A stretch of DNA of 64,000 bases. It comes from Mycolicibacillus parakoreensis (lineage in GTDB: Bacteria; Actinomycetota; Actinomycetes; Mycobacteriales; Mycobacteriaceae). Location: contig NZ_CP092365.1 in the NCBI RefSeq assembly GCF_022370835.2, forward strand, positions 3,596,001-3,660,000. The letters are read 5' to 3'. Below are positions 25,205-42,116 of this stretch, one piece after another (position 1 is the stretch's first letter; each line of letters starts with the position of its first letter). The position numbers were made by a program, and so were the translations under genes. The notes under the pieces were generated by a model. The model did no database searches, was not told where the DNA came from, and worked only from the letters and a program-made list of their open reading frames with translations.

Positions 25205-27799
25205 CTATTCCGTCACCGTCACGGTGCCCCGTGCACCGCCCTCGGCGTGGCGCAGATCGTGGTCCATGATCATGTAGTGCCCCGGTTCGGGGAAGGTGAG
25301 TTCGACGAATCCGCCTTGGGCCGGGGCCAGATCGAGGACCTGCGATCCGCCCCGCGGGGCGTTCGCGGCGCCCGGGCGCAGCAGCCAGGTACCTTCCTTG
25401 TAGACGGTGTCGAATTGGGTCCCGACGATGTGGAAGGCGATGGCGTCGCCGGGTCCGGCGTTGACCAGCCAGATCCGCACCCGCTCACCGGCACGCACCT
25501 CAAGCGGGGCGTGGCGGTACTGGTCGGCCATGCCGTTGAACATCCAGCCGTCGGGGCGGTCGGCCCGGATCGCGGTCGGCTTGTCGTCGCTGTCGGGGTC
25601 ACCGAGGTACAGCTGTGCACCCACCATGGCGAATTCGTGGTCGACCGCCGCCAACCCGGGCGGGTCGATGACGACCGCGCCGTACATGCCGTTGGCGATG
25701 TGCAGGGAGATCGGATCGGTGCTGCAGTGGTAGAGCCAGGCACCGGCCCGGTCGGCGGTGAACCGGTAGATCAGCCGCTCCCCCGGTTGCAGGGTCCGCA
25801 TCGGCTGGTCCGGGGCGAGCGCACCGGCATGGAAGTCGATCCCGTGGCCCATGGTGGTGTCGTTGATCACGGTGATCTCGAAACGATCGCCGACCTCGCC
25901 GTGCAGGATCGGCGCCGGCTCGGTGCCGCCGAACGTCCAACGGGTCTCCCGACGACCGGGGGCGACCTCGAGCTCCTCGTCGGTGGCGCGCAGCTCGACG
26001 CGGTGCAGGCCGGGCTGCGCGGCCGGCAGCGCCGGATCGCGCGGGGTCCATCCCGGTGACGGGTCGGTCGCGAGATTGAGCTCGGGCGCCTGCCCGGTCG
26101 CCTCCCCCTGATGACCGGCGTGGGCCTCGCCGCGCTCGGCTTGGCCGCCGACCGCGACGACGGTCATCGTCATCCCGGCCGCCTTGTGGCCGGGAACATC
26201 ACACCAGATGTCCCGATCATGGTCGACCACACCGATATCGAGCATCGCCGTCTCGCCGCGACGCAGCCGCGGGGTGTGCTCGCCGCTGTCGGCACGCAGA
26301 TCGTGCGGCAGCGACTCGTCGTTGGTCACCCGCAGCACCAGATGGGTGCCGGCGGCCACCTCGACGGTGTCGGGCCACACCCGCATGTCGTGCAGCGCCA
26401 CGTCGACGACCGTGGCCGCGTCGGGCACCGGGGCCTGCTCGTCGCCGACCGACGGTCCCACGCCGGCGGCGACGGCGACGACCACCGCGGCCAAACCGGC
26501 CACCAGCCCGGTCATCGTTCCCGGAAGCCGCCGCTCGATCGCCTCGACGTTCATCCGTCGCCGCAGCATCGCCGGAATCGCCAGGCGCAGTGCCAATCCG
26601 ACGAAAGTGGCCACACCGATCGCCGCCAGCGCCCAGCCGACCACCCGGATCGGTCCCGGCCAGTGCGCCGCGACCAGGGGCACGGCGAGGTTGAGCACCG
26701 CCAGGCGCGCCTGCCAGCCCTGGGCGAGATAGCCGACGACGGCCTTGCGTTCGGCCGGGCCCTGGGCCACCACGACGGGCAGCATCTGGGTCAGCGCACC
26801 GATGAGGATCTGGGCGACGAAACCGATGACCAGCAGGGGCATCACGACGGATTCGACCAGCCCGGGAAGCACCTCCACCGAGCGTGACCACGCGGCGCCG
26901 ACCATCTCGATCAGCACGGCGACCGCCAGCCAGCCCATCGCGGCGGCCAGGTTCCACGAGGCGACCTCCCGCGGTTTGCGGGTGGGCCACAGCGCCACCA
27001 CCGCGATGACCACCCCGGCGGCGTAACCGATCAGGCCCACGCCGGCCAGCCACACGTTGTCGATCAAGACCCCGGCGACGACCGCGACCAGCCCGGCGAC
27101 CAGGGTGGGCAGCGTGCGGCGGGCCAGTTTGATGCTGCGCTCGGTGATCCGCACCCCGGAGGCCACCGGCCAGAGCGTGAACAGGGTGCCCACCACGGTC
27201 AGCCCGATCCAGCCGTAGAGCATGACGTGCACGTGGGTGGACCACAGCTGCGCATACCAGCCGTCGGCGCCCAGGGCCAGGGCCGCCCCGGCGGCGGCGC
27301 CGATGAGCAAGGCGGTGCCGGAGGCCACGTAGAAGCTGATCAGGTAGTCGAACCGGGCCTGCAGTGCGGCGCGTCGCATGACGATCAGATGCGCCGCGTG
27401 CACCACCGCCACCACCGCGACCGCCACCCCGGCGACCGCGGTCAGCACCATCACGCCGCTGTAGACACCGGCCAGGGCGGTGATCGCGGCGACGTTGAGC
27501 ACGGCGAGTTTGGCGCTCAGCTGCCACGACGGCGGGTCCGGTGCCCGGCACAACGTCGCGGCGAAATGCTCCGACCAGATCACGATGGCGTTGGTGGCCG
27601 CGCCGAGCAGCAGCGCGTGGACCGGCAACCACACCGACAGGCCCAGCGCGTCGTAGCTGAGCAGCAGCGCCACCGCCACCGCCAGCCAGGCCAGCACCAC
27701 GACGTTGCCGATGACGAAGACCGGCCGCCGCGGCCCGCCCGGTTTACCGGGCCTGATCGGCGGAGGCTTCTTCGAACTCGAGGCCGCCACCTGGATCAT
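25205..27799 (-). CDS. Fusion of polytopic membrane domain, cupredoxin and multicopper oxidase
   Basis: An 864-residue protein with three parts. Residues 28-445 form about 11-12 membrane helices, resembling NnrS/heme-copper-oxidase-subunit-like domains (HVHVMLYGWIGLTVVGTLF). Residues ~470-560 are a cupredoxin with a His, Cys, His and Met ligand set (LPHDLRADSGEHT, IWCDVPGHKAAGM). Residues ~590-864 are a two-domain multicopper oxidase like AniA nitrite reductases, with HYxC-type copper ligands (WLYHCSTDPISLHIANGM, HYMIMDHDLRHAEGG). The likely role is nitrite or copper/NO-related electron transfer at the outer membrane face. It may be part of nitrosative or hypoxic response, given the DosR-like box upstream. 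Confidence 0.82.
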   Translation of the reverse strand: MIQVAASSSKKPPPIRPGKPGGPRRPVFVIGNVVVLAWLAVAVALLLSYDALGLSVWLPVHALLLGAATNAIVIWSEHFAATLCRAPDPPSWQLSAKLAVLNVAAITALAGVYSGVMVLTAVAGVAVAVVAVVHAAHLIVMRRAALQARFDYLISFYVASGTALLIGAAAGAALALGADGWYAQLWSTHVHVMLYGWIGLTVVGTLFTLWPVASGVRITERSIKLARRTLPTLVAGLVAVVAGVLIDNVWLAGVGLIGYAAGVVIAVVALWPTRKPREVASWNLAAAMGWLAVAVLIEMVGAAWSRSVEVLPGLVESVVMPLLVIGFVAQILIGALTQMLPVVVAQGPAERKAVVGYLAQGWQARLAVLNLAVPLVAAHWPGPIRVVGWALAAIGVATFVGLALRLAIPAMLRRRMNVEAIERRLPGTMTGLVAGLAAVVVAVAAGVGPSVGDEQAPVPDAATVVDVALHDMRVWPDTVEVAAGTHLVLRVTNDESLPHDLRADSGEHTPRLRRGETAMLDIGVVDHDRDIWCDVPGHKAAGMTMTVVAVGGQAERGEAHAGHQGEATGQAPELNLATDPSPGWTPRDPALPAAQPGLHRVELRATDEELEVAPGRRETRWTFGGTEPAPILHGEVGDRFEITVINDTTMGHGIDFHAGALAPDQPMRTLQPGERLIYRFTADRAGAWLYHCSTDPISLHIANGMYGAVVIDPPGLAAVDHEFAMVGAQLYLGDPDSDDKPTAIRADRPDGWMFNGMADQYRHAPLEVRAGERVRIWLVNAGPGDAIAFHIVGTQFDTVYKEGTWLLRPGAANAPRGGSQVLDLAPAQGGFVELTFPEPGHYMIMDHDLRHAEGGARGTVTVTE

Positions 27800-29266: not shown

Positions 29267-30273
29267 CCGCCGACGGTGGCGTGGCGCCCCCGGGACTTCT
29301 TCTTCGCGCGCCGCGGTCGCCGCAGCGGCCACGGCACGCCCGCCAGCGTCGCCACGCCCACCTCGGTGCGCCCCTGCAGACGGTCCCCGGAGAGCGGATC
29401 CATCGCCGCGAGCACCGCACGGTGGATCCCGCGCTGCGGGGTCAGCCCGCCCAGCGGTGCCGCCGCGGCCGGGCGTTCCGCGGTGCGCAACGCGCAGGCG
29501 GCCGCCACCGCGGGCTCGGCGGGGGTGCCGGTGATCTGCATCGCGGTCCAGGTCTCCTTGGTGGGCTGCAACCAGACTTCACGCAGCGTCTCCGACAGTG
29601 CGCCGTCCACCGAGATCCGGTAGGCCGCAAGGTAGTCACCCTGCTCGTCGGCGACGGCGCGCCACGTCTCCTTGCCGCCCGTCTCGATGAGCATCGGAAC
29701 GTCCTCCGACTGCGCCACCGCGGCGTCCCACCCGAGTTCACGAAGGTGGTCGGCGAGCCGCCGGGCCGCCACCCGGGCGGTCTCCTGCAGTGGCACCGAC
29801 GCCGATCGGGCCTGCAGCGCGGCGAGGTTGTCCGCGGCCGCCACGGTGAGCCCGATCCAGGTGTCGCGCTGCCCCTGTTCGGGGTCACCGTCACGGCTGG
29901 TGATCTGGATACTGTCGGCCCGGATGCCGTAGCGGTCCAGATAGCCGGCGAGCAGCGGCAGGGGCAGCACCCCGTCGGCCCCCTCGGTGGGGGTGACGCT
30001 GAGCACCGCGGTCGTCGTCGTGACCGGATCGGCGGGGGCCCGCTTGATCCGGTTGCCGCTGAGCACGGCCAGACCGCGACGCAGCAGCGTGGTGATGTGC
30101 AGGCCACGCCACCAGGCCAACAGCAAAATCACGATCGCGACGGCCACCCCGAGTATCCAGCGGTCCCGCGTCGTCGGCCACGGGTAGGCCAGCGCCGCCG
30201 GGATCACCGCCAACGCGACCAGCGTGAGGCGCGCGGGGCCGGGCCACACCATTGTCGGTCGGTTCATGCTCAT
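29263..30273 (-). CDS. eccE3: ESX-3 component EccE3
   Basis: A 336-residue membrane protein: two N-terminal helices (ARLTLVALAVIPAALAYPW, WILGVAVAIVILLLAWWRG) followed by a soluble EccE domain. It is the peripheral inner-membrane subunit of the type VII secretion machinery. The length and the last position in the operon match EccE3. The ATG at 30273 overlaps the mycP3 stop by four bases. The C-terminal 20 residues are strongly basic. Confidence 0.93.
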   Translation of the reverse strand: MSMNRPTMVWPGPARLTLVALAVIPAALAYPWPTTRDRWILGVAVAIVILLLAWWRGLHITTLLRRGLAVLSGNRIKRAPADPVTTTTAVLSVTPTEGADGVLPLPLLAGYLDRYGIRADSIQITSRDGDPEQGQRDTWIGLTVAAADNLAALQARSASVPLQETARVAARRLADHLRELGWDAAVAQSEDVPMLIETGGKETWRAVADEQGDYLAAYRISVDGALSETLREVWLQPTKETWTAMQITGTPAEPAVAAACALRTAERPAAAAPLGGLTPQRGIHRAVLAAMDPLSGDRLQGRTEVGVATLAGVPWPLRRPRRAKKKSRGRHATVGG

Positions 30274-31649
30274 CCGGAGGTCTCCTTTCGCCGACGCGCG
30301 ACCAGCGCGGCGACAACAGCAACGGCCAGCAACAGAACCGCGGATCCGGTGTAGGCGACGATCCGCGGGGTGGGATCGACCGGCTCTGGATCTGGGGGTG
30401 CCGGAATGGATTTCGTGGGTGCGGTGTCAGCGGCGGCGGGCAGCTCCCAGGTCAGTGCCGCAACCGGGTCCAGGGTGCCGGCACCGACCAGGTTCGACGG
30501 TGCCCGCGCCGCGTTGTGCGCGGTGGCGGTGATGCGCTGCACCACCTGATTGGCCTTCATCTCCGGAAAACGGCTGCGCACCAACGCCGCGACCCCCGCC
30601 ACGTAGCCGGCGGCGTACCCGGTGCCACTGAGCGGCACCAGCTTCTGTTTGTCGCCGGGCAGCGCGTTGGCCAGCCCGCCGTCGTCGCGGTTGGAGACCG
30701 AGGCGATGTTCTCCCCGGGTGCGGCGATCCCCACCCACGGGCCGGACATCGTCAGCTTGGACGGCTGCCCGGTCGGGGTCAGCGCCCCCACCGACAGCAC
30801 GTAGGGCTGCCAGTACGACGGCAGCGACAGGGAGCTGACTCCGTCCCAGTTCCGCGAGTTGGGCCGGTTCAGGTCGGTGAGGGGGTTGGACTCGCAGGCC
30901 GCGCCGCCCCCGAATGCTCCGGAGGCGCCGTTGTTTCCGGCCGCGGCCACCACGACCGCGTCCTTCTCCACGACGGCGTAGCGCAGCGCGGCACCCAGCG
31001 CACTCAAGTCGATGGGTCGATCCACCGGCAAACAGCTCGGCTGGGACAGGGTGATCACCCGGGCGCCGAGGTCGGCGGCGTGCACGATGGCGCGGGCCAT
31101 CATCGCCACCGCGGCCGTCGCGTGGGCCACCGTCGGTTCGCTTCCGTCTCCGGTGCGCGGCGAGAACCGCATCGACGCCGCACGGATCGCCAGCAGGGTG
31201 GATTCCGGTGCCACACCGGAGAAGCCGTCGTCGCCGGGTTGGCCGGCGACGATCCCGGCAACCAGGGTGCCGTGGCCGTCACAGTCGGTGAGCCCGTCGG
31301 TGGATTCCACGTAATCCCCACCGGCCTCCACCTCCGGCAGCCGCGGCCCGGGCCGCACCCCGGTGTCGATGATGGCGACCTTCTGACCGGCACCGCGGGA
31401 GAACTGCCAGGCGTCGGGCAGGTTCAGCATCTGCTGGCTGGTCGTGGCCGCACCGGGATCGGTGCCCGGCAGCACCTCGGACACTCCGCAGGCACCGAAC
31501 TGCGACATCTCGGTGACCGGTCCGGGGGTGCCGTCCGGTGGGGCCACGGCGGCATCGATCTGCGGCGGGTCGATGGCCGCAGCCGGTGGGCTCACCGCCA
31601 GCCCGGCGGTGAGCACCACGGTCAGCAGGCTAAGGCCGACACGGCTCAT
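30270..31649 (-). CDS. mycP3: ESX-3 mycosin MycP3, catalytic Ser replaced by Gly
   Basis: A 459-residue subtilisin-like mycosin with signal peptide (LSLLTVVLTAGLAVSPPAAA), catalytic domain and a C-terminal transmembrane anchor (GSAVLLLAVAVVAALVARRR). Asp95 (VAIIDTGV) and His126 (DCDGHGTLVAG) are present. The motif that normally reads SGTS is SGTG here (SGTGYAAGYVAGVAALV), with a GGG codon at 30620-30618, so residue 344 is Gly. M. tuberculosis MycP3 has Ser in this position from memory. The gene is otherwise intact. Mycosins are needed structurally to keep the membrane complex together, and protease-dead versions still secrete, so this may be a natural pseudoprotease. A base-call error should be excluded. 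Confidence 0.93.
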   Translation of the reverse strand: MSRVGLSLLTVVLTAGLAVSPPAAAIDPPQIDAAVAPPDGTPGPVTEMSQFGACGVSEVLPGTDPGAATTSQQMLNLPDAWQFSRGAGQKVAIIDTGVRPGPRLPEVEAGGDYVESTDGLTDCDGHGTLVAGIVAGQPGDDGFSGVAPESTLLAIRAASMRFSPRTGDGSEPTVAHATAAVAMMARAIVHAADLGARVITLSQPSCLPVDRPIDLSALGAALRYAVVEKDAVVVAAAGNNGASGAFGGGAACESNPLTDLNRPNSRNWDGVSSLSLPSYWQPYVLSVGALTPTGQPSKLTMSGPWVGIAAPGENIASVSNRDDGGLANALPGDKQKLVPLSGTGYAAGYVAGVAALVRSRFPEMKANQVVQRITATAHNAARAPSNLVGAGTLDPVAALTWELPAAADTAPTKSIPAPPDPEPVDPTPRIVAYTGSAVLLLAVAVVAALVARRRKETSG

Positions 31650-34638: not shown

Positions 34639-36189
34639 TCAGTTGTCGCCGCCCCCTTCCGCGCTCTCGTCGGGCGGAGGCTCCCAGGTGCCCGGCATCA
34701 TCGGCACCGTCGGGCTTTTGCCGACCTCGTCGGCGGTCAGCGTGGCCAGCCCGGTCGCACCGGCCGCGGATTTGGCCGCGGTCCCGGTGAACCCGAGCCG
34801 TCCTGCGCTGCGTTCGGACGCGGTCGACGCCGGGTCGGACCCGCCGGCGTCCGGTGCGCCGCTGTTCATGTCCATGAACTCGTCGCCGAAGTCCTTCATC
34901 TTCTTGCGTTGCCGGCGCCGGGCGCGCGCCTGCTCACGGGTCATCGCCCGCACCCCGGCCGCCGCGGCCGGCACCCGGGCAGCCGGCGCCGGGGCGCCCT
35001 TGCGGTCGATGAGGTTCGGTCCGACCGCCGGACCCCATCCTTCGGTGCGCACCACGTAGCCGACGGCTTCGGCCCCGGTGACCGGCACCGCGGGCGACGC
35101 CGGGGCTGCCGGAGCCGGTGTCGCCGGGGCGCCCGGTGCCGCGGCGCCCGGAGCCGGGGTGACCGGCGCCGACAGCGGCGGGGCGTCCTGACGGGCCGTC
35201 GCCTGCTCGCCGGGGCCGGGCTGATCGGCCGGGGCCTGCTCTCCGGGCATCCCGTCGACACCGACCTGCTGCAGCTGCGAACCGACGCCCAGGGCGAGCC
35301 CCAGCACCAGCGGCAGCAGGAAAGGGGAGCTGAGGATCATCGCCCAGGTCGGCCAGCCCACCAGGTTGAAGAACACCTGGTAGACGACCAGGAACAGCAG
35401 CGCCGGGTTCGCGAACGGGTTGGCCAGGAACGCCCACAGCGCGCCGGGTTCGGTGAACAGGTTGATGATCGGCTCGTACATGCCCCTGAGGAGATCCATA
35501 TAGCCGCCGATCGGGTCTTGGAAGAGCCGCATCAACGACTGGAGCAGATCAGTGATGACGTTCGACGAGTCCAGCGCCGATCCGGACTGCGCCGCCTGCG
35601 GCTGTGCCTGGGCGGACATGGGGTTCGCCGACGCGTCGGCGGCCTCGGCGCCGGGCAGCATCACCGGCGGTGCCGGCGCGGTGCGTGACGTGGAGGCCAC
35701 CGCCATGGTCGAGGTCGTCTGGTAGGTCGTCATCGTCATGGCGGCCTGGATCCACATCCGCACGTAGTCGGCCTCGTTGAGCGCGATCGGGATCGTGTTG
35801 ATACCGAAGAAGTTCGTCGCCACCAAGACCCCGTGGATGGCGTGGTTGGCGGCCAGCTCGCCCAGCGTCGGCATGGTCGCCAGCGCCGCCACGTAGCTGC
35901 CCGCCGCCACCTCGTGCTGGGCCGCCTGCACCCCGGCATTCGCGCCGGCCTGGGCCAGCCACGCCAGATAGGGCAGGTGGGCGGCCAGGTAACGCTCGGC
36001 GCTGGGGCCCTGCCAGGCGCCGGATTGGACCGCCCCCAGCACGGTGGTGAGCTCAGCCGCCGCCGAACTGTATTCGGCACCCAGTTGGGTCCATGCGGTC
36101 GCCGCGGCCTGCAGTGGTCCCGGTCCGGGACCACTGCTGAGCATCGCCGAATGCACCTCCGGCGGCGACGCGAACCAGACGGGAGACAT
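34639..36189 (-). CDS. ppe4: ESX-3 substrate PPE4
   Basis: A 516-residue PPE protein, [20 protein letters not shown]..., with PPE motif at 9-11, SGAWQGPSAERY turn and the N-terminal roughly 180-residue helical domain. The C-terminal part holds membrane-like helices (VFFNLVGWPTWAMILSSPFL) and an Ala/Pro-rich tail ending in EPPPDESAEGGGDN. It pairs with PE5 and is part of the iron-acquisition function of ESX-3. Genes in this position are PPE4 in M. tuberculosis. Confidence 0.93.
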   Translation of the reverse strand: MSPVWFASPPEVHSAMLSSGPGPGPLQAAATAWTQLGAEYSSAAAELTTVLGAVQSGAWQGPSAERYLAAHLPYLAWLAQAGANAGVQAAQHEVAAGSYVAALATMPTLGELAANHAIHGVLVATNFFGINTIPIALNEADYVRMWIQAAMTMTTYQTTSTMAVASTSRTAPAPPVMLPGAEAADASANPMSAQAQPQAAQSGSALDSSNVITDLLQSLMRLFQDPIGGYMDLLRGMYEPIINLFTEPGALWAFLANPFANPALLFLVVYQVFFNLVGWPTWAMILSSPFLLPLVLGLALGVGSQLQQVGVDGMPGEQAPADQPGPGEQATARQDAPPLSAPVTPAPGAAAPGAPATPAPAAPASPAVPVTGAEAVGYVVRTEGWGPAVGPNLIDRKGAPAPAARVPAAAAGVRAMTREQARARRRQRKKMKDFGDEFMDMNSGAPDAGGSDPASTASERSAGRLGFTGTAAKSAAGATGLATLTADEVGKSPTVPMMPGTWEPPPDESAEGGGDN

Positions 36190-36570: not shown

Positions 36571-39500
36571 TCATCGGGCCAGGCTCTCGTTGACCAGCGG
36601 GTTGACCAGCTGCAGGAAGGTCGGGGTGTCGCTGTCGCTCAACAACATCGCCCGTCCCGCCGGCATCCGGGCGAACCGCTGACCGCGCACCTTGCCGGCA
36701 TCGGTCGGGTTGCCCGAGAGCATCAGCGTGTTCGCCTGCAGGTCGGTGAACCGGCGCAGCAGCGGGTTGGTCATCAGCACGTGGCCCGACCCGCTGGCGC
36801 GCGCGGTGATGATGACCCGCAGCCCCAGGTCGCCGGCCTGCGCCAGCAGACCGATCAGGCTGGTCCACGGCCGCTGGCCGGTGAACGGGCCGTTCATCGC
36901 CGGTCCGTCCGGGATCTGGTCGGCGTCATCGATGATCAGATAGTGCAGATGCCCCTGGTAACTCCAGTGGGCGAGCTCCTGCGGTGACAACCCCGCCGGC
37001 GGGCGGCGCTTCTCGATCAGCGCCGAGAGCCCCATCATCGCCGGCACCACCCGGTCGATGTTGGCGGTGTACTCGTTGTCGGGGAACAGCGGCTCGTCGA
37101 CCAGGTGCAGACGGCGATCGAGGATGGTGAACGCCACCTGATCGGCGGTGGAGTTCTCCCGCACGGTCCGGATGATGTGACGCAGCAGGGTCGTCTTGCC
37201 GGACTTGGAGTCGCCGAGCACCATCAACAGCGGGTTGTCGGCGAAGTCGAGCGCCACCGGCGCCAGGTCCTCCTCGCGTTGGCCGATGACGATCCGCTCC
37301 CCGCCCCGGTACAGCTGTCCGAGCGTGTCGGGGGCCAGGTTGGTCGGCAGCAGCCGTACCGGCGGTGCGACCATGCCCGGGTAGCGGGCGTTGATCGCCG
37401 CGACGTCGTTGAGATCCGGTGCGGCGAAAAGGAAATGCTCGGCGCCCATGGTCAGGCCGCGCCCCGGCTGGTCGGCCGGGACCGCCTCGGCCGGGCGGCG
37501 CAGCGCTCCGGGCACCCGCACGTTGCTGTCGCGGGCGTCGTGCAGCTTGAGCTCGAGGCGAAGCCCCAGGCCGTCGCGCATCGCCAACGGCACCTCCAGC
37601 CAGTTCGGCGTGGTGATCACCACGTGGATGCCGTAGGCCAGCCCGACGTTGACCAACTCGGTCACCTTGATCAGCAACGGGTTGCGGGTGTTGAACTGGT
37701 CGGTGTTGTCGCGGCTGAACGCGTACAGGTTGTCGATGACCAGAAACACCTCGCCGAACCCGTCGTCGAACCCGGCGGCGCTGCCGTTGCCGCTGGAACG
37801 GCGGAAGGCCTGGCGCTGCTGACGGGCCAGCAGGAGCTGTTCGAGTTCGCCGAAGGTGCGACGGATCTTCTCCGGCTCCAGGGCGGAGGCGACACTGCCG
37901 ACGTGGCCGAGATCCTCGAGGTTGCTCAGCTGACCGCCGCCGTAGTCCAGGCAGTAGAAGCTGACCTCGCGCGGGGTGTGCAGGGCGGCCGCCGACATGA
38001 TGAACGTCTGCAGCGCGGTCGATTTACCCGATTTGGGCCCGCCGTGGATGAGCATGTTGCCCGAGGCCGATGCCGCGTCGAACACCAGCGGGTCGCGCCG
38101 CATCTCGAACGGCTTGTCGATCTCGGCCAGCGGCCAGCGCAGCGAATGCTCGGCCACCCCGCTGCGCACCAGCAGGTCGTCGAGGGCGATCTCGTCATCG
38201 AGCGGGGGCAGCCACAGCTGCGGAGCCTGCGGACCGTACCCGGCCAGCTGGCTTCCGACCGTGGCGATCAGCTTGCGCGGCGGGCCGGCCGGCGCGTCGT
38301 GGTCGTCGTTGACCACGACCGTGCCGTGGTTGGGCTCGACCCGGGCGGCGGTGAACAGCTTCGGTTCCGGAGCCGCGTGCACCACCACGGTCCGCGCCGA
38401 GCGCGGCGGGTCGTAGATCCCGTCGACGTAGGTGCTGCGGAACTTGATCGGCGGGGCGCCGGGGGCGGGTACCAAGAACCCGACGCCCTTGTGCTCCTTG
38501 CCCGATTCGATGTGATAGGCGTCCTCGACACCGATGATCTGCCGCGACACCGAGGGGCTGGCCACCTTCAACCCGATCCGGTAGGAGGTGTTCTTGTCGA
38601 TGTCCTTGATCTTGCCGACGTCGAGTGTCTGCGACGCGAACAGGATGTGGATGCGGAACGAGCGTCCCTTGCGGGCCACGTAGTCGAAGAGCTCGGCGTA
38701 CTCGGGGTGGTCGGCGAGCATCAGGGTGAACTCGTCGGCGACGACGAACAGCGTCGGGATCGGCGGCAGGTCGTGCCCGGCGGCGATCGCCTCTTCGTAC
38801 TCGGTGACCGAGTTGAACGTGCTGCCTTGAACCTGACGTCCGGCCTCGCGCAGCATCAGCTCGCGACGGGCCACCTCCCCGCGCAGGGTGTCGGCGAACC
38901 GGTCGGCCAGGGAACGCTTTTCGGCCATGTTGGAGATCACCGCGACGACTTGCGGGAAGTTGCGGAAGATGTCGGCCCCGGCCTCGCCCTTGAAGTCGGC
39001 GTAGATCACGATGAGCCGCTCTGCGGAGTGGGTGGTCAACAGCGACAGCAGAATCGACATCAACGTCTGCGACTTGCCGGAACCGGTCATCCCGATCATC
39101 AGGCCGTGCGGCCCCATCCCGCCCTCGGCCTCGTCTTTGAGGTCGAAGTACAGCGGCTCGCCGGTCGCGGTGACCCCGATGGGGACCCGCAGCTCGTCGT
39201 CGCGGTGCCGCGGCGCCCACAACGCCGGCACGTCCAGTTGAGTGGCGTCGGGGATGTCGAGCAGCGTGGTGAACGTCGCGCCGCGGGTGGCCGCCGACTG
39301 CAGCCCGACGTGGGTGGGGTTGGAGTCCCACCGCGACAGCCGCCGGGCCAGATGCGCCGCCTCATCGACACCGAGGGTGTCGGCGGCGTCGATGTAGGTC
39401 TGCCAGCCACCGCTGGCCCACCGCTGCAGTTCGCCGTCGAGGACCCGCAGGATCGGGCGTTCCGGGTCGGGGTACTGCTCGCGGTGCGGCGGTGTGGTCG

Positions 39501-40545
39501 AGCGGTGGATGACCGTGACGCCGGCGCGCCCGCGCGCCAACGGCGATCCCTTGATGTCGTAGTCGGGGTCGTCGACGACGACCAGCAGGTGCCGCAGCGC
39601 CTCGACCGGGTCGCCGGTGAACTCGGGGCGGTCCGCCAGCGTCGGCTGCAGGTGATCGAGCAGATCCTCCACGCTGGTCGACAGGTAACGCGCCGATCCC
39701 ACGCCGTCGATGTGGCCCGGGATGTCGACGTGGGGAAGCCATTTCAGCCACGACCACGCCGGGTCCTCGACCTGCGGGCAGGCCAGCGCCACCCCGAGCA
39801 CGGTGGGGTCGTGCCAGGTGACCGCCTGGGCGATCCAGGCGCGCAGCACGGCGCGCACCTCGTCGGCGGCGTCCTCGGGCTCGGTGGCGTCGCTGAACAG
39901 CGTGATCCGCGAGACCCGTCCCAGCTCGATGCCGACCGGCGCCTCGCGCACCAGCCGCTGGGTCTCCAGCAGACCGCGCAGCGCGCTGTGGGAGACCGGC
40001 TCGAGGTCGATCTCGTCGGCGATGTCCTGCACCCGCAGGTGGGTGTCCAGCGGCACGTCGTGCAGCCCGGTGCGCAGCACCAGGAAGTCGGTGTCGCGCG
40101 GGTCGCGCTCCCACTGCCGGCGGGTACCGGCCACCGCGGCCAGGGTGTCGGGTTCGGGATGCGACCACTGCAGGCGGGTGCGCTGCTGGGCGGCCTGTCC
40201 GCGGATGTTGTCGCGGACCACCGACAGGTAGCGCAGGTAGTCGGCGCGCTCGGCGTCGACGTCGGCGGTGCGGTTCTTCTTGTCACCGCGGAAGAACCCG
40301 GTCGCGGCGAACAGCAGCACCAGCGGGAAGAACAGCACCAGCGGCGAGATCATCCGCATACCGGTCGCCACGATGGCGACCACGGCTCCGACCACGAGCA
40401 GGATGATCAACACCGGCAGCGCACGCTGCAGCATCGAGGCGGGCACCATCCGCGGCAGTTCCGGCGGCGGCTCGATACTGATGGTGCCCTGGCGGGTTGC
40501 CGGCGGTGGCACCCGTCGGCGCGCCTCAAAGATCAATCGGCTCAT
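36571..40545 (-). CDS. eccC3: ESX-3 secretion ATPase EccC3
   Basis: A 1324-residue FtsK/SpoIIIE-type motor. Two N-terminal membrane helices ([36 protein letters not shown]) are followed by three ATPase domains with Walker A motifs GMTGSGKS (~485), GGPKSGKS (~835) and GDSKSGKT (~1112). Substrate signals of EsxG/H bind the last domain. ATG 40545 is used because it gives the family N-terminus [14 protein letters not shown]; it overlaps the eccB3 stop by ATGA. Size agrees with EccC3 (about 1330). Confidence 0.96.
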
Positions 40546-42116
40546 CGGGTCTCCTGGGCTGCCCGGACGGTGCGTCCGGAGGCGGGTGTGTCGGGGGCGA
40601 TGCCGTCGTGCGCGATCAGCGCGTCGGCGCGCGACAGCGCCGGACCGGGCGCGAACAGCGTCAACATCGACCACGGGATCGGTAGGGCCGGTGGTGTCAG
40701 CCCGAGGGCCTCCACGGTTTTCGAATCCCCGGTGGCTCCGGGCGCATCGTCGATGCCGTAGCGCACACCGGTGTCGGAGACCCAGTACAACGCGCCCTCG
40801 ACCGGCGAGGTCGGCTCCGAGCCCACGACCTGGGTGAAATAGCCGCTGCCCGGCGGCACCGCCACGCGCGCGGCGGTGCCCTCGGCACCGGCGCCCACCA
40901 GGTCGACGGTGTGCATGTCCGCGCCGATCGGAAGCGCCGATCCCGACAGCAGGGTCAGGGTGGAGGCGGCCGCCCCGGACTCCTTGGCCCAGTTGGCGCA
41001 GGTGACCGGATCATGGTCGGCGTCAACAAGGTTCAGCCGCTGCTCGGGGTACCGGGAGGTGTCCAGGGCGCGCGACACCGGGAGCTGGGCGATCGCGTCG
41101 GCCGACAGCCGCGGCGGTTGGTCCAGCCCGTAGGAGTCGGTGTTGCGCAGCAACGCGGCCAGCACCGGGGAGATCGGCTGCAGCCCGTCAGGAAGCACCG
41201 CGTAGTACAACGCGGAGTGGTCGGCGGCGTAGGCGACGACCACCGCGCCGACCGGGGCCGGCACCGGCAGCTCGAAGTCCGCCGGTTCGCCCGCGCCGGG
41301 GATGTCCGGCTGCGCCAGCGGCGGAGCCTCCGGGATCACGTTGAACAGCCCGGTCGCGATCGGGCGGGCGGGCGGAACATTGACACCCCAGCCCAGCGCT
41401 CCGGTCACGGCACGGTCGTTGACGTCGATCGGGCTGCGTCGGCCGTCCCACAGCAGCCAGGTGCGTGCGCCGTTGTCGACCAGCACCGCCTGCTGCTCGC
41501 CGAGCAGCCCGGCGCGCGCGCCGTCGCTCTGCGGCGCCCCGGCGATCACGGTCAGCCCGGCGTCCCGACCCGACGCCGCATCGCAGACGGTCCAGTCCGC
41601 GTCGGTGGCGTCGCTTTGCACCATCCGCTCGGGAGCGCCCGGGATACCCAGCAGGTTGCCCCGCGGAATCTCGTCGAGCTCACTGGTTTTGACGGTCTTC
41701 GGGTCTTCGTCGCGACCGACGATCAGTCGCGCCGAGGTCAGGTTCAACACCGGGTGCAGCTGCTCGCCGAGGCGCACATACAGCGCCGACGTGGTGCGGT
41801 CGGCCAGAATCGGCTCGTTGCCCGGAGCACCGCCGGGACGGATGAAGGAGAACACGAAGAACCCGCCCACGGCGGTGATCGTGATCAGCGCCCCCATCAC
41901 CACCGAGCGGGTCTGGGTGCGCAGCGGCTCCACCAGCATCCGCGCGTCGTGCAACGCCACGCCGGAGGCGATGCGCCGCATGACGAAACGCCACCCGGTG
42001 ACCTGATGTTTGGTGACGAAGCCACGCCGGTAGACCACCCGGTCGGGGTTCTCGTTCACCGGCGTGCGGGAGGCGAACCCGCGGCGGTCGTCGTCGAGCG
42101 ATTCGGAATCGGTCAT
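40542..42116 (-). CDS. eccB3: ESX-3 component EccB3
   Basis: A 524-residue protein: cytosolic N-terminus with [20 protein letters not shown], one transmembrane helix ([20 protein letters not shown], about 72-92) and a large periplasmic EccB domain. Forms the periplasmic part of the type VII channel with EccC/D. Paired ATGA overlaps with eccA3 and eccC3 show tight operon organisation. Confidence 0.95.

What the first reader, a model, noticed from the sequence alone, without database searches (positions are those of the whole stretch)
30618..30620. ESX-3 mycosin MycP3 lacks its catalytic serine (Ser to Gly at residue 344)
Sequence shows Asp95, His126 and all surrounding motifs intact but SGTG in place of the SGTS box, codon GGG. 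From recall, M. tuberculosis MycP3 has Ser here. Mycosins keep the type VII membrane complex together even when protease-dead, so a naturally protease-dead MycP3 with an otherwise intact ESX-3 locus would separate the two roles in nature. GGG differs from the usual AGC/TCC by two or more bases, so a single base-call error is less likely.
Basis: partly seen in the sequence, partly recalled or inferred. Interest (0 to 1): 0.82.

Follow-up and report, generated by a model that had tools for sequence, protein, structure and literature searches.

The report
ESX-3 mycosin that lost its protease
A bacterial secretion machine carries a protein built like a protease whose cutting residue is missing; the same loss has happened many times in related bacteria while the protein stayed well conserved, which suggests its lasting job is to hold the machine together rather than to cut.

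Summary
In detail: window codon 30618-30620 (minus strand, GGG) puts Gly at residue 344, the nucleophile position of the ESX-3 mycosin MycP3. Asp95, His126 and Asn239 are kept, and the ESX-3 locus from eccA3 to eccE3 is intact. It is very unlikely to be a sequencing error, and it is not unique. In 217 distinct mycP3 genes of the genus with ESX-3 neighbours (not a random sample), 51 lack the Ser and 59 lack at least one triad residue. On three trees this needs at least 17-18 changes at the Ser site and 9 at the His site. Serine-less genes are full length, keep four cysteines, and have dN/dS not detectably different from intact ones. The window's genome also has a Ser-less MycP4 and MycP5; two other mycosins are intact. 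MycP1 kept the triad in 70 of 70, including 12 genomes with a Ser-less MycP3. That contrast is confounded at the Ser site: MycP1 uses TCN serine codons and MycP3 uses AGY. Best explanation: MycP3 is maintained as the structural cap of the ESX-3 complex, and its proteolysis is dispensable and repeatedly discarded. New variant of a known kind. Activity and assembly were not tested.

The parts
30270..31649 (-). mycP3 (ATG form, 459 aa), mycosin of ESX-3
30618..30620 (-). codon 344, GGG (Gly) at the catalytic Ser position
31365..31367 (-). codon of Asp95 (kept)
   Evidence: coordinates counted from the start codon
31272..31274 (-). codon of His126 (kept)
   Evidence: coordinates counted from the start codon
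30933..30935 (-). codon of Asn239, oxyanion hole (kept)
   Evidence: coordinates counted from the start codon
29263..30273 (-). eccE3
   Evidence: TIGR03923; PF11203
31646..33064 (-). eccD3
   Evidence: TIGR03920
33105..33959 (-). espG3
   Evidence: PF14011
33960..34247 (-). WXG100 gene, esxH position
   Evidence: TIGR03930
34281..34580 (-). WXG100-like gene, esxG position
   Evidence: TIGR03930 below cut-off
34639..36189 (-). PPE gene
   Evidence: PF00823
36192..36503 (-). PE-like gene (weak match to the first 87 positions of the LipY model)
36571..40674 (-). eccC3 open frame, three Walker A motifs; the true start is probably inside, near 40545
40542..42116 (-). eccB3
   Evidence: TIGR03919
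42113..43954 (-). eccA3
   Evidence: TIGR03922

Best explanation
The window's MycP3 is a pseudoprotease: a mycosin that kept its fold, its place in the ESX-3 operon and its C-terminal membrane helix but lost the serine nucleophile, so it should not cut peptides by the subtilisin mechanism. It most likely works as the periplasmic cap that locks the ESX-3 membrane complex together, as MycP5 does in ESX-5. Across the genus the triad of MycP3 has been broken repeatedly, through different residues, while the rest of the protein stays under strong purifying selection. So the structural role is what selection maintains, and ESX-3 proteolysis is dispensable in many lineages. Shown here: the residue changes, their recurrence, the conserved frame and low dN/dS, the predicted fold. 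Inferred: loss of activity, and a capping role for MycP3.
Against: No activity or assembly data for this protein. The sample is not random. Asp95 is kept in 49 of 51 and His126 in 45 of 51 Ser-less genes, so the pocket may keep some use. Most genes (158 of 217) keep the whole triad, so proteolysis is probably useful in many species. The dN/dS test shows no difference but is weak: the ratio of MycP3 to EccD3 is a little higher in broken pairs (disjoint 0.94 against 0.89, p 0.12; over all pairs 1.19 against 1.03), and over all 546 mixed pairs MycP3 has 0.225. PMC6389172 (passages) reports that deleting mycP3 alone hardly affected growth of M. smegmatis, which speaks against a vital cap there; PMC5082899 cites MycP3 as essential for viability. 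Parsimony cannot tell loss from regain; some Ser-bearing genes could be revertants.
Confidence: 0.8

Rival explanations
1. Sequencing or assembly error, or a decaying pseudogene.
For: A single codon in one assembly was the original evidence.
Against: Gly at this site in a separate 93%-identical protein and in 50 of 217 mycP3 genes; 51 of 51 Ser-less genes full length and low dN/dS.
Confidence: 0.02
2. Another mycosin in the same cell supplies proteolysis to ESX-3 in trans, so the loss in MycP3 is buffered.
For: The window's genome keeps two mycosins with all catalytic residues (L049 ESX-2-type, L052 ESX-5-related). PMC5082899 (passages) prefers redundancy with other proteases, possibly other mycosins, to explain its MycP5 mutant.
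Against: Four of six sampled genomes with two ESX-3-type loci have both MycP3 copies Ser-less. Ser state does not track presence of MycP1 on the tree: same way 1.4, opposite 3.0 of 15 independent pairs, median p 0.69 (only MycP1 was scored). Each mycosin is described as working specifically within its own ESX system (PMC5082899 passage).
Confidence: 0.15
3. The cleft has been reused: without Ser, Asp95, His126 and often Asp239 form a ligand- or metal-binding or substrate-guiding pocket.
For: Asn239 is replaced by Asp in 39 of 51 Ser-less genes but in 3 of 166 Ser-bearing ones. On the combined tree the two changes go together in 6.8 of 16 independent pairs and oppositely in 0.0, median p 0.016, range 0.008-0.07. 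A lineage with Asp at both 239 and 344 exists. Asp95 and His126 are mostly kept.
Against: The commonest changes S to G, N to D, H to R and D to G can each be a single A-to-G change (codons), so neutral change after loss could look the same. Asp239 is fixed in MycP5, of which 103 of 120 have Ser. On the masked MycP3 tree the pairing is weaker (5.8 of 15, median p 0.03, range 0.016-0.375). The 239 state is alignment-dependent in at least one row (L038). No ligand evidence.
Confidence: 0.06
4. The protein still cuts by an unusual route (water- or substrate-assisted, or another nucleophile).
For: Asp-His pair and oxyanion Asn kept in the window's protein.
Against: The residue at -3 varies. Other relatives lack His or Asn.
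Confidence: 0.04

Closest known systems
MycP3 structure PDB 4kg7 (organism recalled as M. smegmatis)
   Different: 4kg7 has the Ser (GTSYAAAY); the window has Gly.
Engineered protease-dead MycP1 and MycP5 of M. marinum (PMC5082899 passages; PMC5156307 part 1 of 2)
   Same: Catalytic Ser removed, protein otherwise whole; secretion kept in those mutants.
   Different: Laboratory mutants of ESX-1 and ESX-5; here natural, recurrent, in ESX-3, and old enough for species to diverge with it.
MycP5 of M. tuberculosis in the intact ESX-5 complex (7np7, PMC8131196)
   Same: Mycosin fold; a trimer caps the periplasmic chamber and stabilises the complex (passages).
   Different: Ser present; another ESX type; about 45% identity.
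Non-peptidase homologues of family S8 (general concept, recalled)
   Same: Subtilase fold without the full triad.
   Different: No named example was tested here.

Membership tests
T7SS mycosin (NCBIfam TIGR03921) | Score over the curated cut-off | tested here: met
   376.3 bits against 278.75
T7SS mycosin (NCBIfam TIGR03921) | Encoded in an ESX locus beside eccD and eccE | tested here: met
T7SS mycosin (NCBIfam TIGR03921) | Subtilase fold with C-terminal membrane helix | tested here: met
   Model and match to 4kg7; helix 427-456 predicted, its membrane location inferred
T7SS mycosin (NCBIfam TIGR03921) | Binds EccB and caps the membrane complex | not testable with these tools
   Seen in print here for MycP5 only (PMC8131196)
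Catalytically active S8 serine protease | Asp-His-Ser triad | tested here: not met
   Gly344
Catalytically active S8 serine protease | Oxyanion-hole Asn | tested here: met
   Asn239
Catalytically active S8 serine protease | Proteolytic activity | not testable with these tools
   Needs purified protein
ESX-3 orthologue (MycP3) | Closest to MycP3 rather than to other mycosins | tested here: met
   4kg7 is the best solved match; the kept related loci hold EccD3- and EccE3-like genes in the same short stretch

The most novel reading that the evidence does not exclude
Loss of Ser and gain of Asp at the oxyanion position are a repeated, directed conversion of the mycosin cleft from a protease into an Asp-His-Asp pocket that binds a ligand, metal ion or passing substrate in the ESX-3 export chamber, a system linked to iron and zinc.
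Probability: 0.06. Interest if true: 0.78.

Novelty: new variant of a known kind. Interest (0 to 1): 0.62.

Why it matters
What mycosin proteolysis is for, and why mycosins are needed when it is not, has been argued from laboratory mutants of MycP1 and MycP5. Recurrent natural loss in MycP3, in genes that stay conserved, gives many independent natural mutants. Comparing ESX-3 substrates and complexes between neighbouring species with and without the Ser makes the question directly testable. It also warns against annotating every mycosin as a serine protease (records of triad-broken relatives such as M. koreense and M. trivialis are named so) and against treating MycP3 as a protease-inhibitor target across the genus.

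Tried and rejected
Sequencing error and pseudogene decay were rejected (see rivals). A relocated nucleophile was rejected because the neighbouring Ser is not conserved.

The reading 'unique to this genome' was rejected by the genus survey.

The reading 'MycP1 proves the contrast' was weakened by my own check. MycP1 serines are TCN in 70 of 70 (a narrower pattern read 55 of 70, all TCN) and MycP3 serines AGY in 166 of 166, so Gly is one step away only from MycP3's codons. The His comparison is free of this: lost in 14 of 217 MycP3, 0 of 70 MycP1, 0 of 120 MycP5, 1 of 120 MycP4. By independent events it is weak, and I ran no test on it.

Association of Ser loss with lack of MycP1 looked strong in raw counts (29 of 42 Ser-less loci without MycP1 against 29 of 119 Ser-bearing ones) but vanished on the tree. 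His loss does not go with Ser loss.

A first structure job with 30 sequences gave a useless model (pLDDT 44.7); 96 sequences gave pLDDT 84.5. Papers PMC3859186 and PMC6442028 are not held, so earlier remarks on missing catalytic residues there cannot be excluded. One regular-expression hit (MycP4, L360) was wrong; reading the frame shows GTSFAAP there.

Rows dropped before the 217 count: 17 loci (15 loci of other mycosins, ten of them fetches and repeat fetches of the own genome's other four; two repeat fetches of the window) and 5 identical repeats, out of 239. Listed places that were not fetched were left out for the cap, without knowledge of their residues. The 40 extra MycP1 stretches were picked partly because their genome has a Ser-less MycP3.

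Full report
WHAT IS THERE. The window (G000:C1:3596001-3660000 of a 3.94-Mb genome) holds a complete ESX-3 locus on the minus strand: eccA3, eccB3, eccC3, PE-like, PPE, two WXG100-type genes, espG3, eccD3, mycP3, eccE3. Among the named loci its mycosin is nearest to that of Mycolicibacillus koreensis (90%), then sp. 1274756.6 (78%) and M. trivialis (77%). Codon 30618-30620 is GGG, Gly344 of the 459-residue MycP3. Asp95, His126 and oxyanion Asn239 are kept. The solved MycP3 4kg7 has Ser at the site.

NOT ALONE. I read the four residues (Asp95, His126, Asn239, Ser344) in the best 120 proteins listed (of 5,547 passing the threshold; the window's own is one of them): 23 of 120 lack Ser (15 Gly, 7 Asp, 1 Ala) and 17 of 120 lack His. 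After dropping other mycosins and repeats, 217 distinct mycP3 genes remain, each with EccD3- and EccE3-like genes in the same short stretch, from 210 genome handles and one further named contig. States: 155 DHNS, 33 DHDG, 10 DHNG, 5 DRNS, 14 others. Ser is lost in 51 of 217, His in 14, Asp in 2, any of the three in 59. This is not a random sample. Per genome, no sampled MycP3 has Ser in 45 of 210, and every sampled copy lacks some triad residue in 53 of 210.

HOW OFTEN IT HAPPENED. On FastTree trees the Ser state needs at least 18 changes (EccD3+EccE3), 18 (MycP3 with active-site blocks masked) and 17 (all together); 20 label shuffles per tree need 42-50, so the losses also cluster by descent. 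His needs 9. If loss is irreversible, Ser was lost 20-21 times. In the window's own clade the triad broke by different residues: S344G here; H126Q with Ser kept in M. koreensis; H126T, N239D and S344A in M. trivialis; H126T, N239D and S344G in sp. 1274756.6; one near relative on record keeps all three (P0007, 84% identical). M. triplex has Gly where M. genavense and M. ahvazicum, found by the same search, have Ser.

OTHER MYCOSINS. The window's genome has five mycosins (seven matched pieces). MycP5 (L051, best match M. tuberculosis MycP5 at 1.5e-225) has Ala in an AGPAY box. MycP4 (L050; some of its homologues are named MycP4) has Gly. An ESX-2-type one (L049; gene order recalled as ESX-2) and an ESX-5-related one (L052) are intact. 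So three of five lack the Ser. Among the best 120 homologues listed, MycP5 lacks Ser in 17, including the first seven rows, and MycP4 in 5. In 30 genomic loci each nearest to the window genome's own proteins, MycP5 lacks Ser in 1 (the own one) and MycP4 in 2, so the loss is commoner in MycP3. MycP1 has no match in this genome at E 1e-120. In 70 MycP1 genes, from 157 genomes with a match, 70 are DHNS, including 12 whose genome has a Ser-less MycP3. I first took this as a clean contrast. It is not clean at the Ser site: MycP1 serines are TCN in 70 of 70, MycP3 AGY in 166 of 166, MycP5 AGY in 29 of 29. Gly is one A-to-G change from AGY and not from TCN, so codon class alone may shield MycP1. MycP1 does have a known substrate, EspB (PMC5082899, passages), so constraint is a second reason.

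PATTERN OF CHANGE. Asn239 is Asp in 39 of 51 Ser-less genes and in 3 of 166 Ser-bearing ones. On the combined tree the two go together in 6.8 of 16 independent pairs and oppositely in 0.0 on average, median p 0.016, range 0.008-0.07; on the masked MycP3 tree 5.8 of 15, median p 0.03. Asp95 and His126 are mostly kept (49 and 45 of 51). The commonest changes can each be a single A-to-G step, so a mutational account suffices, but reuse of the pocket is not excluded. The 239 state depends on the alignment in at least one row (L038).

MECHANISM. In ESX-5 three MycP5 cap a periplasmic chamber with active sites facing inward, and the complex loosens without them (PMC8131196, passages). Protease-dead MycP1 and MycP5 still support secretion in M. 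marinum (PMC5082899, passages; PMC5156307, first of two parts). By homology MycP3 should do the same for ESX-3. The natural data fit: the fold is kept, the triad is not. Against a vital role everywhere, deletion of mycP3 alone hardly changed growth of M. smegmatis (PMC6389172, passages). Loss of activity and capping by MycP3 are inferred.

NOVELTY. Full-text searches showed me no report of natural loss of mycosin catalytic residues: searches returned nothing, and for the others I saw listings, plus passages of PMC5082899, PMC8131196, PMC6389172, PMC11217815, PMC6986878, PMC1660551 and PMC10924467 and part 1 of PMC5156307. Other listed papers were not opened. Most subscription papers, and the two mycosin papers I asked for, are not held. 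The claim is limited to that.

VERDICT. Real, recurrent, well supported as sequence evolution, mechanism inferred: a new variant of a known kind.

Noticed in passing
L051:9514-11256 (own genome, G000:C1:1125001-1145000): MycP5 of the same genome has AGPAY where M. tuberculosis MycP5 has AGTSF: catalytic Ser to Ala; the first seven of 120 listed MycP5 homologues, own one included, lack Ser.
   Followed up: partly
L050:8208-9584 (own genome, G000:C1:3092001-3112000): MycP4 of the same genome has EGTGY: catalytic Ser to Gly; the residue aligned to the oxyanion Asn is Gly, as in 96 of the 120 listed MycP4 homologues.
   Followed up: partly
MycP1 loci L239-L308 versus MycP3 loci: The active-site Ser codon is TCN in 70 of 70 MycP1 but AGY in MycP3 (166 of 166), MycP5 (29 of 29) and six ESX-2-type mycosins. 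The classes are not one step apart, so one lineage switched class somehow.
   Followed up: no
L049:13162-15678: Beside an ESX-2-type cluster lies a second WXG100 pair (93% and 79% identical to the window's) with PPE- and PE-like frames, on the opposite strand.
   Followed up: no
G022, G069, G073, G078, G143, G174: Six sampled genomes carry two ESX-3-type loci; in four of them both MycP3 copies lack the Ser.
   Followed up: partly
G069, G076, G099, G123, G130, G133, G156: MycP4 matches with one stop inside the matched range; it may be only the natural end read through by the search.
   Followed up: no
P0025, P0053, P0064, P0071, P0093, P0109, P0120: MycP3 proteins with Asp at both the oxyanion and the Ser position (DHDD).
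   Followed up: no
window 25205-27799 (-): An 864-residue frame with many hydrophobic stretches and copper-oxidase-like motifs by eye (recalled, no search).
   Followed up: no
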